Source: Oscillibacter ruminantium GH1
GTDB taxonomy: Bacteria; Bacillota; Clostridia; Oscillospirales; Oscillospiraceae
Length of the DNA stretch: 64,000 bases
NCBI RefSeq assembly: GCF_000307265.1
Contig: NZ_DF158899.1
Location: forward strand, 1-64,000
Direction of reading: 5' to 3'
A model generated the notes under the pieces. It saw only the letters and a program-made list of their open reading frames with translations, was not told the origin of the DNA and searched no databases. The position numbers and the translations under genes were made by a program. Position 1 is the first letter of the stretch; each line of letters begins with the position of its first letter. Below, piece after piece: positions 4,416-9,949 of the stretch.

Positions 4416-4847
4416 ATGATGGAGCTTTTGGAAAACCATTTGCTGATTAATTCGCTGATCGCTTGGGCGGCGGCGCAGATTATTAAGACAATTATCTATG
4501 CTTCAGTCAATCGAACGCTGGATTTTCACCGGCTGGTGGGTGACGGCGGAATGCCCAGCGGTCATTCCGCAACGGTCACAGCTTTAGCCGTTACAGCGGG
4601 ATTGGAATACGGCGTCGATTCCGCCATATTCGCGGTGGCGACAATTTTGGCCGTTATTGTCATGCACGACGCTATGGGCATCCGGCTGGAAGCCGGGCGG
4701 CATGCAAAAGCACTTAATGAACTTTTGGAGTTGTTCAGCAGCGACATTAAGAGCGATGAAAAAATGAAGGAAATTCTTGGACATACGCCCTTGCAAGTGG
4801 CGTTCGGTGCGCTGCTGGGGCTGGCTGTGGCCCTGCTTTTGGGTTAA
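4416..4847 (+). CDS. divergent PAP2 family protein (DUF212/YuiD-like)
   Basis: Small membrane protein of 143 residues with the DUF212 signature GDGGMPSGHSA (about 43-53) and a later HDAMGIRLEAGRHA (about 88-101). These resemble the phosphatase motifs of PAP2 enzymes but in a shorter protein. Homologues include B. subtilis YuiD. A lipid phosphatase role is inferred, not shown. Ribosome site GGGGGAGG precedes ATGATG; either ATG is possible. Transcription may start in the repeated -10 elements upstream. Confidence 0.85.
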   Translation: MMELLENHLLINSLIAWAAAQIIKTIIYASVNRTLDFHRLVGDGGMPSGHSATVTALAVTAGLEYGVDSAIFAVATILAVIVMHDAMGIRLEAGRHAKALNELLELFSSDIKSDEKMKEILGHTPLQVAFGALLGLAVALLLG

Positions 4848-4900
4848 ATACGCGAACCATCCGGTCTGCTCTTAGACAGCCAAGTTTTCAATCAGTACAA

Positions 4901-4937
4901 AAAAGCCGATTCCCAATCAGATTGGGAATCGGCTTTT
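4901..4937 (-). terminator. bidirectional terminator
   Basis: Stem AAAAGCCGATTCCCAAT with its exact complement around a CAG loop, flanked by A and T runs on both sides. It ends the PAP2-like gene on the plus strand and the fprA operon on the minus strand. Confidence 0.85.
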
Positions 4938-4986
4938 CAAATGAATTGAGCGCGATTTCAGGAGGCAGTCGCCTTTCGTTTTGCAG

Positions 4987-6189
4987 TTACTTGGTAACGG
5001 AGGCGGCGATGGCATCCGCCATTGCATCCAAATCAGGCATGTTCTGCTCCTGCAGAGAGGACGCCAGCGTCATGCCCTCATCCAGAATCTCCATGTGCTT
5101 GAGATCCTCTAGACAGGCACGCATCAGGCTTCCGGAGCGGGGCGCCCAAGAACCATTTTCCATAATGGCGCAGGTGCGGTTTTGAAGATTCAGGGCCTTC
5201 ATGTCCGCCAGGAAGTTGTGCATCGGCGGGAAAATGCCCAGATTGTAGGTGACGGAGGCCAGCACCAGATGGCTGTACTTAAAGAGGTCGGAAATGAGAT
5301 AGCTGACATGGGTGGAGGAGACATCGTAAAGCCGAGTATTGGTGATGCCCCGCTGGCACAACTTGGCGGCCAGCAACTCCGCCGCGGCCTCTGTGTTGCC
5401 GTACATGGATGCGTAGACGATCATAACGCCCCGCTCCTCCGGCTCATAAGTGCTCCAGTGGATATATTTGTCCAGAATATATCCGATGTCCTTGCGCCAC
5501 ACCGGGCCATGGAGCGGGCAAATGTACTTGATGTCCAGTCCCCCGGCTTTTTTCAGGAGCGTCTGCACCTGTGGCCCATATTTGCCCACAATGTTGGTGT
5601 AGTAGCGGCGGGCATCGTCCAGCCAATCCCGGTCAAAATCAAACTCATCGGCAAACAGCTTGCCGTCCAGCGCCCGGAAAGAGCCAAAGGCGTCGGCAGA
5701 AAACAGCACTCCATCGGTCACGTCAAAGGTCACCATGGCCTCGGGCCAGTGAACCATGGGGGCATTGACGAAGGTAACCGTGTGCTTGCCGAAGCACCGG
5801 GTGTCCCCTTCGTGAACCTCCTCTACGCGTTCGCCCAGTTCAAATCCAAACTGATGCAGCAGGATCACGGCCTTCGGCGTGGTGATTATATTCACCTCCG
5901 GCCAGCGCAGCAAAATCTCCTCAATGGAAGCTGCGTGATCCGGCTCTACATGGTTGATGACCAAGCAGTCCAGCGGACGACCATCCAGCACCGCCGCAAT
6001 ATTCTCAAGAAACTGCCGCCCCACGGACCAGTCCGCCGTGTCAAAGAGCACGGTCTTCTCATCCAGAAGGACATAGGCGTTGTAAGACACGCCGTGGTAG
6101 AGCGGATGGATGTTTTCAAACAGAGCCAGACGGCGGTCATTGGCTCCGACCCAGTAAAGATCGTCGGTAATTTTCCGAACATTGTTCAT
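4987..6189 (-). CDS. fprA: A-type flavodiiron protein (O2/NO reductase)
   Basis: Protein of 400 residues with an N-terminal metallo-beta-lactamase-fold diiron domain (about 1-250) and a C-terminal flavodoxin domain (about 253-400). All seven diiron ligands of the family are visible: H80, E82, D84, H85, H147, D166 and H227. The FMN phosphate loop is SMYGNTE (261-267). The family reduces O2 to water or NO to N2O in the cytoplasm of anaerobes, taking electrons from rubredoxin. The gene directly upstream ends in a rubredoxin domain, so that protein is the likely electron donor. The genes are 44 bases apart with AAAGGAGG before this ATG, so they probably form one operon. Confidence 0.93.
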   Translation of the reverse strand: MNNVRKITDDLYWVGANDRRLALFENIHPLYHGVSYNAYVLLDEKTVLFDTADWSVGRQFLENIAAVLDGRPLDCLVINHVEPDHAASIEEILLRWPEVNIITTPKAVILLHQFGFELGERVEEVHEGDTRCFGKHTVTFVNAPMVHWPEAMVTFDVTDGVLFSADAFGSFRALDGKLFADEFDFDRDWLDDARRYYTNIVGKYGPQVQTLLKKAGGLDIKYICPLHGPVWRKDIGYILDKYIHWSTYEPEERGVMIVYASMYGNTEAAAELLAAKLCQRGITNTRLYDVSSTHVSYLISDLFKYSHLVLASVTYNLGIFPPMHNFLADMKALNLQNRTCAIMENGSWAPRSGSLMRACLEDLKHMEILDEGMTLASSLQEQNMPDLDAMADAIAASVTK

Positions 6190-6233
6190 AACGCGATACC
6201 TCCTTTAAAATATCAGCTAAAATATCAGCAAAT

Positions 6234-8144
6234 TTACACGTCGATTTTAATGAACTGGTCGGTCGACTCGCCGCAGTGGGGGCAGCTCCAGCCATCCGGC
6301 AGTTCGCCAAACGGCGTACCGGGACGGACGTCGCCTTCCTCGTCTCCCACCAGCAGATCGTATTCATAGCCGCAACCGTTGCAAACGTATAGCTCTCTGG
6401 GCTGTGCAGTCTTCTTCGCCGTGGCGCGCTTCATCTTGACCATGGGCGGCGCAGGCTGTTTTTCTCCGGTGTCCAGCGCGGCAGTCAGCAGAGGCAGAAT
6501 CTCGTTCACATCGCCCACAATTCCGTAGTCACAGTTTTTGAAAATCTTCGCGTTGGGATCAAGATTGATTGCCACAATGGTGGAGGCATCCCGAATCCCC
6601 TTGAGATGCTGGCCCGCGCCGGAGATTCCGCAGGCGATATACAGATTACCCTTGAATTTCTGGCCGGACATGCCTACATAGCGATTCAGCGGGACATATT
6701 TCAAAGTCTCCGCCACAGGACGGGAGGAACCGACAGCTGCGCCCGCGGCCTTTGCCAAGTCCTCAATGAGCTTCATGTTCTCCTTGGGGCCAATGCCCTT
6801 ACCGGCGGAAACCACTCGCTCCGCCTGCGCGATGGGCGTATCCATCGGGATACCCACCGTGAAGTCATAGCCGTCCTTTTTCAGATCCGCCACCAGCGCG
6901 CTCACGCGCTCATCCGTAGTTCCTTCGGTAAACAGGATCTTTTTCCGCACACCGGTTTCAGGGCCGCGCTTGCTATGAACCGCGGGCTGATCCGCCTTGG
7001 CGATCCGGCCCAGAACGTGGGACGCGATGACCACCCGCTGAATTTCGTTGGTTCCCTCGTAGATGGTGGTGATTTTGGCATCGCGGTACATCCGCTCCAC
7101 TTCCATCCCCTTGAGATAACCGGTGCCGCCGAAAATCTGCACCGCCTCATTGGTAACTTCCAGCGCAATATCCGAAGCATACTGCTTTGCCATGGCGGAC
7201 TCCATGCCGTAAGGTGCGTGTTCATCCTTCAGCGCGGCGGCAGAGTATACCAGCAGACGAGCAGCCCGGAGTTTCGTTGCCATATCTGCGATCTTAAAGG
7301 CGACGGCTTGCTGCTGACAGATGGGGCGGCCAAACTGAACCCGCTCCTTGGTGTATTCCACAGCGGCCTCAAAAGCCCCCTGTGCAATGCCCAGTGCCTG
7401 TGCCGCAATGCCGATGCGCCCGCCGTCCAGCGTGGCCATAGCAATATTAAAGCCCTTGCCCTCCTTGCCCAGAAGATTTTCTTTGGGCACCTTTACGTTG
7501 TTGAAAATCAGCTCGCAGGTTGCGGAGGACCGTATTCCCATTTTATCATAGTGATCGCCAAAAGCAAAGCCTTCCCAACCCTTTTCCACGATAAAAGCAG
7601 AGATGCCCTTGACCCCGATATCCGGCGTGGTGACGGCAAAGACCACATAGGTATCCGCCTCGCCGCCGTTGGTAATAAAGATTTTCCCGCCGTTGAGCAG
7701 CCAGTGGTCGCCCATATCCTCAGCAGTCGTCTCGGTGCCGCCGGCATCAGACCCCGCATTCGGCTCCGTCAGGCCAAACGCGCCAATCTTTTTGCCGGAG
7801 CACAGATCGGGCAGATACTTTTTCTTCTGCTCCTCCGTGCCATAGGCCCAGATCGGCCAAGTCCCAAGGGATGTGTGGGCCGACAGAATGACGCCGACGC
7901 CGCCGTCCACCCGGGCCAGCTCCTCCACCGCGATGGCATAGCTGAGAACATCCAGTCCCGCGCCGCCGTACTTTTTTTCATAGGGAAGCCCCATGAGCCC
8001 CAGCTTTCCCATACTACGGACTGCGTCGGCAGGAAAAGTATTCTCCTTATCCAGCATAAACGCAATGGGTTTGATTTCGCTCTCCGCAAATTCCCGTACC
8101 TTTGCCCGCAGGGTCTCCTGCGCTTCGGTTGTTTGATAGAACAT
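6234..8144 (-). CDS. acyl-CoA dehydrogenase / ETF-alpha FAD domain / rubredoxin fusion
   Basis: Three-part redox protein of 636 residues. Residues 1-385 are a complete acyl-CoA dehydrogenase with the catalytic Glu in YEGTNE (E363) and the typical LTEPNAGSD region. Residues about 400-560 match the C-terminal FAD-binding domain of ETF alpha: SAGKGIG (446-452), GSSRPV (472-477), GISGAGQH (506-513) and DYGIVGD (539-545). Residues about 583-636 are a rubredoxin with Cys 588, 591, 621 and 624. The ETF beta subunit and the ETF alpha N-terminal domain are absent. The order suggests electrons flow from acyl-CoA through two FADs to the iron centre and on to FprA, encoded next. The acyl substrate is unknown. 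Ribosome site GAAGGAGG precedes ATG. Confidence 0.93.
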   Translation of the reverse strand: MFYQTTEAQETLRAKVREFAESEIKPIAFMLDKENTFPADAVRSMGKLGLMGLPYEKKYGGAGLDVLSYAIAVEELARVDGGVGVILSAHTSLGTWPIWAYGTEEQKKKYLPDLCSGKKIGAFGLTEPNAGSDAGGTETTAEDMGDHWLLNGGKIFITNGGEADTYVVFAVTTPDIGVKGISAFIVEKGWEGFAFGDHYDKMGIRSSATCELIFNNVKVPKENLLGKEGKGFNIAMATLDGGRIGIAAQALGIAQGAFEAAVEYTKERVQFGRPICQQQAVAFKIADMATKLRAARLLVYSAAALKDEHAPYGMESAMAKQYASDIALEVTNEAVQIFGGTGYLKGMEVERMYRDAKITTIYEGTNEIQRVVIASHVLGRIAKADQPAVHSKRGPETGVRKKILFTEGTTDERVSALVADLKKDGYDFTVGIPMDTPIAQAERVVSAGKGIGPKENMKLIEDLAKAAGAAVGSSRPVAETLKYVPLNRYVGMSGQKFKGNLYIACGISGAGQHLKGIRDASTIVAINLDPNAKIFKNCDYGIVGDVNEILPLLTAALDTGEKQPAPPMVKMKRATAKKTAQPRELYVCNGCGYEYDLLVGDEEGDVRPGTPFGELPDGWSCPHCGESTDQFIKIDV

Positions 8145-8209
8145 ATGCTGACCTCCTTCTTGAACTCCTATTCATCTCACGGCAAACCGCAACAAGTTTT
8201 CTATTTATT

Positions 8210-8237
8210 AGTATATAAGGAATTCCTTGTTTGCAAA
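8210..8237 (-). promoter_or_regulatory. candidate promoter with palindromic operator before the acyl-CoA dehydrogenase fusion
   Basis: Minus-strand TTTGCA (8232-8237), 16 bases, TATACT (8210-8215). The spacer contains the perfect 12-bp palindrome AAGGAATTCCTT (8217-8228). The region 8150-8430 is very A/T rich and otherwise holds only the inverted repeat CACCATTTT/AAAATGGTG (8285-8314). No gene was seen in it. Confidence 0.45.
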
Positions 8238-8433
8238 GTGATATTTGCAACTGTATTTATATTTTATAAATTTGTCGATTTACACACCATTTTTGTGCAT
8301 TTTGTAAAATGGTGCTTTATTTCAAAGTAAGCATCTTCCGCATCCTCAATCACATTTTTCTCTGACAAAACACTTTAAAAATCCTCTATTCAGAGATCGA
8401 GTATCTAAGATTCCAAAACCGTTCTCCATAAAA

Positions 8434-8482
8434 AGCAGCGCGCCCCCGGCGGAAAGTTCCGTCGGGGTGCGCTTCTGCTGCT
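8434..8482 (-). terminator. terminator of the nucleobase permease gene
   Basis: A long hairpin from AGCAGC to GCTGCT with a G/C-rich centre, followed on the minus strand by TTTTTA. It lies about 75 bases after the permease stop. Confidence 0.75.
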
Positions 8483-8557
8483 AAAAACAGTGAATTTTAA
8501 AATTTAAAATCAGGCGCTCTGTTTGAGTGGTTCGGTGAGCCTTTAAACCAAACGGAC

Positions 8558-9949
8558 TTACTTCTTCTCCACCGTCTCCGGGGTCAGAGCGTCAATGTCC
8601 TTCAATTCGATTTTCTTAGGCAGTGCAAGGGAAAGAACCATTGCCACCACAAACACACCAGCCACCGGATTCCCGGAGAAAATGTCGCCGATGACCTGCG
8701 GCATATGGGCGAAGAATCCATCCACCTGCGTCACACCGATGCCGATGGCAAAGGATGCGGCGGCAATCAGCGTATTGCGCTGATCCAGACCGCACTGGCT
8801 TAACATGGTCACACCGGAGACAATGATCGCACCGAACATAATGACCGTGCAGCCACCCAGCACACAGCTGGGCAGTGTGGAGAAAAATGCACCGATGGGC
8901 GGAAACAGCCCCGCGATTACCAGTGTCAACGCACCAAACATAATGGTAAAGCGGTTGACCACCTTGGTCATGGCCACAAGCCCAACATTTTGGCTGAAGG
9001 ACGTGATGGGGGTGCAGCCGAAAAGTCCGCCGGAAACCGCAGAGATGAAGCCGTCGCAGCAAAGGGACCCGGAAAGTTCCTTCTCTGTGATATCCCGGCC
9101 AAGACCGCCAGTACACACGGCGGTGGTATCGCCGATTGTCTCCGCCGCCGACACGAAAAACACCAGCGTTACCGAAATAATCGCGCCCAGCTCAAATTTA
9201 GGCATATAGTGCAGCATCATGGGGAAGGAGATTACGCCCAGCTCCCCTACCGTGTCACCAATCGAGTCAAAATTCACCATGCCAAAGCAGATTGCAGCGA
9301 TGTACCCCACGACCAGCCCGAACAGCACGTACAGCTGTTTCCAAAAGCCCTTGGCAACAGCCTGAAAAATCAAGCAGGCCGCCAGCGTGATCGTTCCCAC
9401 CAAAAGGTTTTGCCAGCTGCCAAATTCAAAGGCGTCCGACGCGCCATAGGAACTGATTCCAACACCCAAAAGCGAAAAGCCGATGGTCGTCACCACGCAG
9501 GCAGAAACAATGGGGGCTACAAACCGCCGCCAGTATTTCACGGTCAGTCCCAAAATGCCCTCGATACAGCCGCCGACGATGATCGCGCCGATCATAATCC
9601 CGTAGTCCCGCGCCGCCACCACCATCATGGCGGAGACAAACGTAAAGCTGACGCCCATGACCACCGGAAGCCGGGAGCCAATGCGCCAAAGAGGATAGAG
9701 CTGGATCAGCGTGCCGATTCCGGCAATCATCATGGCATTCTGAATCAGCCGAGCCACCTCTACCGCAGTAAAGGACGCTCCATCGTACATGGCCACCGAA
9801 GCCACCAGAATGATCGGTGCAACATTGGATACGAACATGGCCAACACATGCTGCAAGCCGAAGGGGATTGCTTTTCCAATTGGGACGCGGCCGTCCAGTT
9901 TGTAGATATTCTCGATCTTCGCTTCCTGTTTTGTGTTTGGGTCCCTCAT
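8558..9949 (-). CDS. uracil-xanthine permease family (NCS2) transporter
   Basis: Membrane transporter of 463 residues, close to family length, with about twelve to fourteen hydrophobic segments. Motifs include PFGLQHVLAMF near the start and a central segment SAAETIGDTTAVCTGGLGRD (about 290-310), typical of NCS2 nucleobase:cation symporters. Xanthine, uric acid or uracil are the plausible substrates. The long frame begins 21 codons upstream; ATG at 9949 was chosen because AAAGGAG precedes it. A purine role is suggested by the nearby 8-oxoguanine-deaminase-like gene at 12040, though they are not in one operon. The mRNA carries a leader of about 109 nt. Confidence 0.88.
   Translation of the reverse strand: MRDPNTKQEAKIENIYKLDGRVPIGKAIPFGLQHVLAMFVSNVAPIILVASVAMYDGASFTAVEVARLIQNAMMIAGIGTLIQLYPLWRIGSRLPVVMGVSFTFVSAMMVVAARDYGIMIGAIIVGGCIEGILGLTVKYWRRFVAPIVSACVVTTIGFSLLGVGISSYGASDAFEFGSWQNLLVGTITLAACLIFQAVAKGFWKQLYVLFGLVVGYIAAICFGMVNFDSIGDTVGELGVISFPMMLHYMPKFELGAIISVTLVFFVSAAETIGDTTAVCTGGLGRDITEKELSGSLCCDGFISAVSGGLFGCTPITSFSQNVGLVAMTKVVNRFTIMFGALTLVIAGLFPPIGAFFSTLPSCVLGGCTVIMFGAIIVSGVTMLSQCGLDQRNTLIAAASFAIGIGVTQVDGFFAHMPQVIGDIFSGNPVAGVFVVAMVLSLALPKKIELKDIDALTPETVEKK

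What the first reader, a model, noticed from the sequence alone, without database searches (positions are those of the whole stretch)
4987..8144. A one-polypeptide electron chain from acyl-CoA to a flavodiiron oxygen reductase
Seen: the 636-residue protein joins a full acyl-CoA dehydrogenase (catalytic E363), only the FAD-binding C-terminal domain of ETF alpha, and a rubredoxin with four Cys. The next gene is a complete A-type flavodiiron protein whose family takes electrons from rubredoxin. Known: normal acyl-CoA dehydrogenases hand electrons to a free ETF alpha/beta pair. Inference: this two-gene operon removes O2 or NO using acyl-CoA oxidation as its direct electron source, without NADH or ETF beta. 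It may also keep the acyl-CoA pool oxidised. I have no evidence that this particular fusion has been characterised.
Basis: partly seen in the sequence, partly recalled or inferred. Interest (0 to 1): 0.8.

Follow-up and report, generated by a model that had tools for sequence, protein, structure and literature searches.

The report
Butyryl-CoA powered oxygen-removing enzyme pair
Two neighbouring genes of a gut-type anaerobe encode an already described kind of enzyme pair that removes oxygen with electrons from a fermentation intermediate; related bacteria of one genus keep the pair although its iron-binding electron relay has lost every iron ligand.

Summary
The 636-aa protein (6234-8144, minus) joins a butyryl-CoA-dehydrogenase-like domain (E363), only the FAD domain of ETF alpha, and a four-Cys rubredoxin. 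A complete class A flavodiiron protein (FDP, 4987-6189) follows 44 nt later. The inference is largely right but not new: this pair was characterised in Fusobacterium nucleatum as butyryl-CoA:O2 oxidoreductase (BOOR; Bystrom & Wolthers 2024), with homologues reported in gut Firmicutes. I saw this in passages of a review and two other papers; the primary paper was not held. That enzyme did not reduce NO, so 'or NO' lacks support. New here, outside the window: in all 29 genomes of one unnamed genus where the fusion was found (at least two others gave no match), the rubredoxin domain is conserved but its four Cys are Asp-Ser-Ser-Ser. These proteins carry an Arg at the ETF-alpha FAD site that nearly all other fusions lack, and the adjacent FDP keeps its iron-ligand motifs. 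This natural removal of the presumed iron relay makes its necessity testable. For the window: new member of a known kind.

The parts
6234..8144 (-). BCR-type fusion protein, 636 aa: acyl-CoA dehydrogenase + ETF-alpha FAD domain + rubredoxin
   Evidence: ORF; Pfam; 22-sequence alignment
7014..8129 (-). acyl-CoA dehydrogenase domain (residues 6-377), butyryl-CoA dehydrogenase-like; E363 at 7056-7058
   Evidence: Pfam; 59% identity and Z 54.9 to C. difficile Bcd 5ol2_C; E363 column
6474..6833 (-). ETF-alpha C-terminal FAD-binding domain (residues 438-557); K449 at 6798-6800 stands where free ETF-alpha has Arg
   Evidence: Pfam; alignments to solved ETF-alpha; column counts
6252..6389 (-). rubredoxin domain (residues 586-631), ligands C588 C591 C621 C624
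   Evidence: Pfam, PF00301 hit; columns
4987..6189 (-). class A flavodiiron protein, 400 aa (ODP 5506-6087, flavodoxin 5182-5421)
   Evidence: Pfam; PF19583 hit; ligand columns; solved relatives
6190..6233 (-). 44-nt gap between the two genes, consistent with one transcript
   Evidence: coordinates; no terminator-like site on the minus strand in 4800-8560, (scan at chance level)
8235..8250 (-). TTGCAAATATCACTTT, 106 nt before the BCR start, overlapping a promoter-like pair (8237-8210); present with at most 1 mismatch upstream of BCR in L029, L030, L032, L033, L069
   Evidence: 6 of 79 upstream regions, window included; only exact copy in the genome; promoter scan at chance level

Best explanation
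The pair is a BOOR-type butyryl-CoA:O2 oxidoreductase. The dehydrogenase domain oxidises butyryl-CoA (or a similar short-chain acyl-CoA) to the enoyl-CoA. Its FAD passes electrons to the FAD of the fused ETF-alpha domain, then to the rubredoxin iron, then to the FMN and diiron site of the FDP, where O2 becomes water (two acyl-CoA per O2). It removes O2 at the cost of a weak reductant instead of NADH, and the enoyl-CoA can be re-reduced by the genome's own Bcd-Etf. Shown here: domains, key residues, gene pairing, conservation, and presence of further acyl-CoA dehydrogenase and ETF-alpha genes, a 3-hydroxyacyl-CoA dehydrogenase and RnfC in the genome. Inferred from F. nucleatum: activity, complex formation, O2 rather than NO, electron order.
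For: Same architecture and gene order as the F. nucleatum BCR-FDP (passages of PMC12288474; PMC13404960; PMC12630350). FDP downstream on the same strand in 75 of 80 (loci), 10 of 10 (family) and 32 of 32 (class/phylum) loci, the 5 misses having 0-428 nt of contig left, and in 30 of 30 further loci with gaps of 5-13 nt. Five intact rubredoxin-less fusions show no FDP (L117 has only 557 nt of contig left). Dehydrogenase domain closest to Bcd. E363 in 109/109 and four Cys in 107/109 distinct homologues; FDP ligand columns 24/24. The genome holds three further acyl-CoA dehydrogenases with ETF-alpha genes beside them, a 3HCDH gene by one set, RnfC and three CoA-transferase-type proteins.
Against: No activity data for this organism. 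No Fusobacterium sequence could be aligned directly. The substrate is not fixed by sequence. In one genus the pair persists with a rubredoxin that lacks all iron ligands, so the iron step is not universal in the family. The full-length model has only pTM 0.58, so domain geometry was not tested. The fusion is patchy (31 of 391 genomes of the class; no match in the other sampled genome of the window's genus, G082, beyond free ETF-alpha).
Confidence: 0.88

Rival explanations
1. Same machine, but the physiological donor is another short acyl-CoA (valeryl-, propionyl- or branched) rather than butyryl-CoA.
For: Relatives include Oscillibacter valericigenes records; that this species makes valerate is recalled. 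Acyl-CoA dehydrogenases of this family accept neighbouring chain lengths (recalled). No NCBIfam equivalog reached its cut-off among the 25 of 31 families shown.
Against: Closest solved relatives are butyryl-CoA dehydrogenases; the characterised homologue uses butyryl-CoA.
Confidence: 0.15
2. The FDP mainly reduces NO, with acyl-CoA as donor.
For: The closest solved FDPs by sequence are flavorubredoxin and FprA entries named NO reductases.
Against: The characterised BCR-FDP complex had no NO reductase activity. A second FDP with its own rubredoxin-like C-terminus exists in this genome and could serve NO (inference).
Confidence: 0.05
3. The rubredoxin of the fusion is a general relay to other acceptors (rubrerythrin, superoxide reductase), and the FDP is only one client.
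For: Rubredoxins serve several acceptors in anaerobes (recalled).
Against: Every rubredoxin-bearing fusion whose flank was checked, contig permitting, has the FDP downstream, and the five intact fusions without rubredoxin show none.
Confidence: 0.06

Closest known systems
Butyryl-CoA oxygen oxidoreductase (BOOR: BCR + FDP, FN1423-FN1424) of Fusobacterium nucleatum, Bystrom & Wolthers 2024
   Same: Three-domain fusion in the same order, two-gene unit with a class A FDP, same inferred electron path (passages).
   Different: Different phylum; activity and complex not shown here; no direct sequence comparison was possible.
BOOR homologues of gut Clostridia beside an Rrf2 regulator (Roseburia, Eisenbergiella, Faecalibacterium; PMC13404960, passages)
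   Same: Same gene pair; an Rrf2-family gene lies within 300 nt upstream in 33 of the 80 loci (71 of the 80 have over 450 nt upstream).
   Different: No Rrf2 gene at the window pair; the genome has four Rrf2 genes over the cut-off, all elsewhere. A different upstream element is shared with five close relatives.
Butyryl-CoA dehydrogenase-EtfAB (C. difficile 5ol2, A. fermentans 4l1f)
   Same: Dehydrogenase fold and FAD domain of ETF alpha.
   Different: Free ETF alpha/beta and NAD-linked bifurcation (recalled); the fusion has no ETF-alpha N-domain.
Class A FDP with separate rubredoxin donor (Moorella FprA 1ycf, Desulfovibrio gigas ROO 1e5d)
   Same: FDP core and ligand positions.
   Different: Donor is a rubredoxin covalently joined to an acyl-CoA dehydrogenase, not an NAD(P)H-fed rubredoxin (recalled).

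Membership tests
BOOR (BCR + FDP) | N-terminal butyryl-CoA dehydrogenase-type domain with catalytic Glu | tested here: met
   Pfam; E363; 59% identity to 5ol2_C
BOOR (BCR + FDP) | only the C-terminal FAD domain of ETF alpha | tested here: met
   PF00766 at 438-518 and no ETF N-domain hit
BOOR (BCR + FDP) | C-terminal rubredoxin with four Cys | tested here: met
   PF00301 60.4 bits; columns 588/591/621/624 (met in the window; not met in genus g455)
BOOR (BCR + FDP) | FDP gene in one transcript with BCR | tested here: inconclusive
   adjacent same-strand FDP with 44-nt gap; domains; the transcript itself was not tested
BOOR (BCR + FDP) | alpha4-beta4 complex; butyryl-CoA-dependent O2 reduction; no NO reduction | not testable with these tools
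   needs purified proteins; stated for F. nucleatum in PMC12288474
BOOR (BCR + FDP) | direct orthology to FN1423/FN1424 | not tested
Class A flavodiiron protein | metallo-beta-lactamase diiron domain plus flavodoxin domain, no further domain | tested here: met
Canonical or bifurcating acyl-CoA dehydrogenase-ETF system | complete ETF alpha and an ETF beta partner encoded nearby | tested here: not met
   no ETF N-domain in the fusion; nine flanking proteins between 299 and 14260 scanned with Pfam, none an ETF

The most novel reading that the evidence does not exclude
In one genus (g455 of family f6) the same O2 reductase works with an iron-free rubredoxin fold. The domain stays as a docking scaffold for the FDP, and electrons pass directly from the ETF-alpha FAD, retuned by an Arg and other fixed changes, to the FMN of the FDP. 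The rubredoxin iron would then be dispensable in this electron chain. The family's history would be: dehydrogenase-ETF fusion first, then rubredoxin together with FDP, then loss of the iron in one lineage.
Probability: 0.45. Interest if true: 0.75.

Novelty: new member of a known kind. Interest (0 to 1): 0.45.

Why it matters
BOOR would let butyrate-producing anaerobes remove O2 with a weak reductant and may lower butyrate output (published arguments); its presence in Oscillospiraceae bears on how gut butyrate producers survive near the oxic mucosa. The pairing data tie the rubredoxin domain to the FDP partner. The Cys-less rubredoxin of a whole genus is a natural removal of the presumed iron relay: it makes the question of what the rubredoxin iron contributes (electron relay or mere docking) directly testable with two purified proteins.

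Tried and rejected
Chance or mis-joined ORFs: rejected, since the fusion recurs in 31 of 391 class genomes with strong conservation. A decaying-domain reading of the Cys-less rubredoxin: rejected by pN/pS 0.174 in that domain against 0.160 for ETF and 0.099 for the dehydrogenase domain in the same 29 genes (0.329 for the rubredoxin of 47 Cys-bearing genes), and by Ser kept through different codon classes (column 621: TCA 15, TCT 4, AGC 5, AGT 5). A sequencing error: rejected, 29 genomes agree.

The upstream motif as a regulon signature: not supported; with up to 2 mismatches the own genome has three matches and the reversed control one. Own Rrf2 genes as unlinked copies of the BOOR-linked Rrf2: weak, 24-31% identity. 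Greedy ORF calling for neighbour tallies failed in GC-rich loci (anchor found in 76 of 122); I used tblastn instead. The full-length model (pLDDT 77.7, pTM 0.58) was too weak for inter-domain distances. The primary BOOR paper was not held. Literature searches for an iron-free or degenerate rubredoxin found nothing (0 papers; 8 papers hold at least 3 of the terms, 7 listed, judged by listing only); that is no proof that it is unpublished. The VIA-align rows shown cover only the dehydrogenase domain, so they say nothing on the other domains.

Against my novel reading: Arg at column 449 also occurs in one Cys-bearing sister gene (G933, seen as L250 and L259), and another sister (L251), nearer in the tree, has Lys, so Arg and Cys loss are not strictly linked (two changes of Arg, one of Cys). 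At least two g455 genomes (G886, G900) gave no match, and 21 unmatched genomes of that search are not listed. Neighbours were checked only for 30 of the matches. The tree that places rubredoxin-less fusions outside the rubredoxin clade has long branches and SH-aLRT 91, not starred. The Cys-less domain model is of middling confidence (pLDDT 74.3, pTM 0.49, from 29 similar rows).

Rows dropped before counts: column counts use full-length proteins only (window, 78 of 90 loci, and 32; 111 proteins, 109 distinct); alignments A1 (22) and A2 (24) are similarity-thinned picks from 78 and 79; the tree uses 38 thinned rubredoxin rows; the tree uses 15 of 29 Cys-less rows. Counts from different searches overlap in a few genes (for example L050 and L107, L079 and L172).
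Full report
WHAT IS THERE. The window (contig C4 of a 3.1 Mb genome in 29 contigs; the closest named relatives of the fusion are Oscillibacter/Dysosmobacter-type Oscillospiraceae) holds on the minus strand a 636-aa protein at 6234-8144 and a 400-aa protein at 4987-6189, 44 nt apart. Pfam splits the first into acyl-CoA dehydrogenase (6-377), the FAD domain of ETF alpha (438-518) and rubredoxin (586-631), and the second into the FDP metallo-beta-lactamase and flavodoxin domains. The dehydrogenase domain is closest to A. fermentans and C. difficile Bcd (5ol2_C: 59%, Z 54.9, 376 residues, rmsd 1.7). E363 falls on the Glu of the Y-E-G-T motif of solved Bcds. The ETF domain is 39-53% identical to 11 free ETF-alpha proteins. 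Flanking genes are unrelated: membrane transporter, ArsR regulator, P-type ATPase, DUF212, xanthine permease, serine dehydratase, amidohydrolase. A 574-aa ORF on the other strand over the same DNA (6606-8330) is most likely a shadow of the coding strand.

IT IS A KNOWN SYSTEM. A literature search led to a review by McGregor and Wolthers (PMC12288474; passages read). It reports that in F. nucleatum an FDP (FN1423) is bicistronic with a fusion of Bcd, the C-terminus of EtfA and rubredoxin (BCR). The two proteins form an alpha4-beta4 complex, couple butyryl-CoA oxidation to reduction of O2 to water, and show no NO reductase activity; many Firmicutes, butyrogenic gut species included, are said to encode BOOR. 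The primary paper is Bystrom and Wolthers 2024 (Biochemistry 63:2352), seen only as a citation (not held). A 2026 preprint (PMC13404960; passages read) finds the same pair in Roseburia, Eisenbergiella and Faecalibacterium near an Rrf2 gene. PMC12630350 (passages read) places BOOR in a cycle with Ldh/Etf/Bcd.

Using residues 395-636 as the query, rubredoxin-bearing fusions occur in 11 of 101 genomes of the family (one cut by a contig end), 31 of 391 of the class and 5 of 398 of the phylum, the own genome counted each time. One search found 492 encoded relatives in named genomes and kept 80. An FDP gene lies downstream on the same strand in 75 of those 80, and the other 5 have only 0-428 nt of contig left; in 57 the gap is at most 150 nt, in 14 it exceeds 300 nt; in most of the 12 wider gaps that I read there is an inserted ORF. 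It also lies there in 10 of 10 family loci and 32 of 32 class/phylum loci, and in 30 of 30 further loci, 5-13 nt away. In contrast, five intact relatives of 561-572 aa have the dehydrogenase and ETF domains but no rubredoxin (Pfam), and no FDP was found in their fetched loci; L117 ends 557 nt after the gene. A sixth, L204, is broken and has an FDP on the opposite strand beside it. In a tree of 46 rows the 38 rubredoxin rows are one side of a branch (SH-aLRT 91) and the five others fall outside (quick tree, long branches). One rubredoxin-less gene (L206) sits between a 3-hydroxybutyryl-CoA dehydrogenase and a butyryl-CoA:acetate CoA-transferase-like gene, the latter below its NCBIfam cut-off, which suggests a butyrate-pathway role with another electron partner. 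One search lists many more such paralogues in family f6; I did not examine their neighbours.

METABOLIC SETTING. The genome has three other acyl-CoA dehydrogenases, two ETF-alpha genes beside them, a 3HCDH gene next to one set (C4:124270), RnfC and three AcetylCoA_hyd_C proteins. A second FDP of 450 aa, 56% identical over 379 residues, ends in its own four-Cys rubredoxin-like tail. This fits the published picture in which BOOR, Bcd-Etf and Rnf cooperate.

A RETUNED FLAVIN SITE. Free ETF alpha carries an Arg in the G-R-G motif near the FAD: 11 of 11 loci here and the solved ETFs 1efp, 5ol2 and 1efv. In the fusions this column (449) is K 50, Q 41, L 10, M 3, V 2, R 2, I 1 of 109 distinct proteins. 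PMC12630350 states that this Arg, a Ser and a His contribute to the high potential of the FAD/semiquinone couple in ETFs, and cites Talfournier 2001 (title seen). What I take to be the Ser (S493) and His (H513) columns are invariant here (the correspondence is my inference from the alignment). I infer that the fused FAD is tuned away from a trapped semiquinone; whether the primary BOOR paper already says so I could not check.

AN UNEXPECTED VARIANT. The only two proteins with Arg in that set, from two genomes of genus g455, also lack all four rubredoxin Cys (sequences). A search of 130 genomes of their family gave 29 g455 loci; at least two further g455 genomes, G886 and G900, had no match. 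All 29 have Asp-Ser-Ser-Ser at the ligand columns, Arg at 449, and an FDP 5-13 nt downstream with all four ligand motifs. All 49 other rows compared, sister genera and other families, have four Cys (49 rows CCCC, 31 rows DSSS; two g455 genomes and one sister gene are counted twice). The change maps to one event (15 Cys-less rows, clade SH-aLRT 99). The altered domain still scores 52.5 and 54.3 bits with Pfam Rubredoxin (cut-off 23; two genes). Its model, built from the Cys-less rows alone (pLDDT 74.3), matches rubredoxin 1rdg at TM 0.93 by target length, rmsd 0.7. It is under purifying selection (pN/pS 0.174), with Ser kept through TCN and AGY codons. Other changes fixed in this genus include four columns of the ETF FAD domain (446, 449, 504, 507), others in BCR (314, 326, 397, 623), and FDP columns 17, 122 and 288, the last mostly Tyr elsewhere and Arg here. 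A rubredoxin variant named PFRD-XC4 (1qcv) appears among the sequence hits; that it was designed to fold without iron is recalled. I infer docking without iron and direct flavin-to-flavin transfer. The alternatives are a different metal, a free rubredoxin as relay, or loss of electron transfer with another role.

REGULATION. The window pair has no Rrf2 neighbour, unlike 33 of the 80 loci. Five close relatives, also without Rrf2 hits, share a TTGCAAA(T/A)ATCACTTT element; in the window it overlaps a promoter-like site, a scan that was at chance level. It has one exact copy in this genome. This is a lead only.

VERDICT. The window finding is real and correctly read in outline, but it is a further member of a published system. 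Its value now lies in the comparative material: rubredoxin tracks with the FDP, and one genus has dropped the iron ligands.

Noticed in passing
L198:6210-8135 (-), L199:5012-6937 (+), L221-L249 (genus g455): BOOR fusion with a conserved rubredoxin fold whose four iron-ligating Cys are Asp-Ser-Ser-Ser in all 29 g455 genomes with a match, beside an FDP with intact ligand motifs; single origin, purifying selection.
   Followed up: yes
L116:7979-9676, L117:7974-9659, L205:6472-8190 (-), L206:5117-6808, L207:4886-6571: Acyl-CoA dehydrogenase-ETF-alpha fusions without rubredoxin and without an FDP in the fetched locus; L206 lies between 3-hydroxybutyryl-CoA dehydrogenase and a butyryl-CoA:acetate CoA-transferase-like gene. 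Electron partner unknown.
   Followed up: partly
L119:7164-10158: An apparent EtfB-EtfA-dehydrogenase operon (G068) whose ETF-alpha FAD domain is 53% identical to that of the fusion, the highest of 11 free ETF alphas compared (L144 52%); possible source of the fused domain.
   Followed up: no
window 8235-8250 (-): TTGCAAATATCACTTT element upstream of BCR, shared with five close relatives that lack the upstream Rrf2 gene.
   Followed up: partly
L211:11201-12553 (-), genome C5: Second FDP of the same genome, with its own C-terminal rubredoxin-like four-Cys tail; 56% identical to the BOOR FDP over 379 residues.
   Followed up: partly
L043:8739-9575, L051:846-1682, L052:8736-9581, L057:8736-9572, L067:787-1623: A recurrent gene of about 280 codons inserted between BCR and FDP in some Oscillospiraceae; function not assigned.
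   Followed up: no
L063, L065, L066, L068: Lachnoanaerobaculum (Lachnospiraceae) proteins are 78-79% identical to the window protein and L063 falls among Oscillospiraceae rows in the tree, suggesting horizontal transfer of the pair.
   Followed up: no
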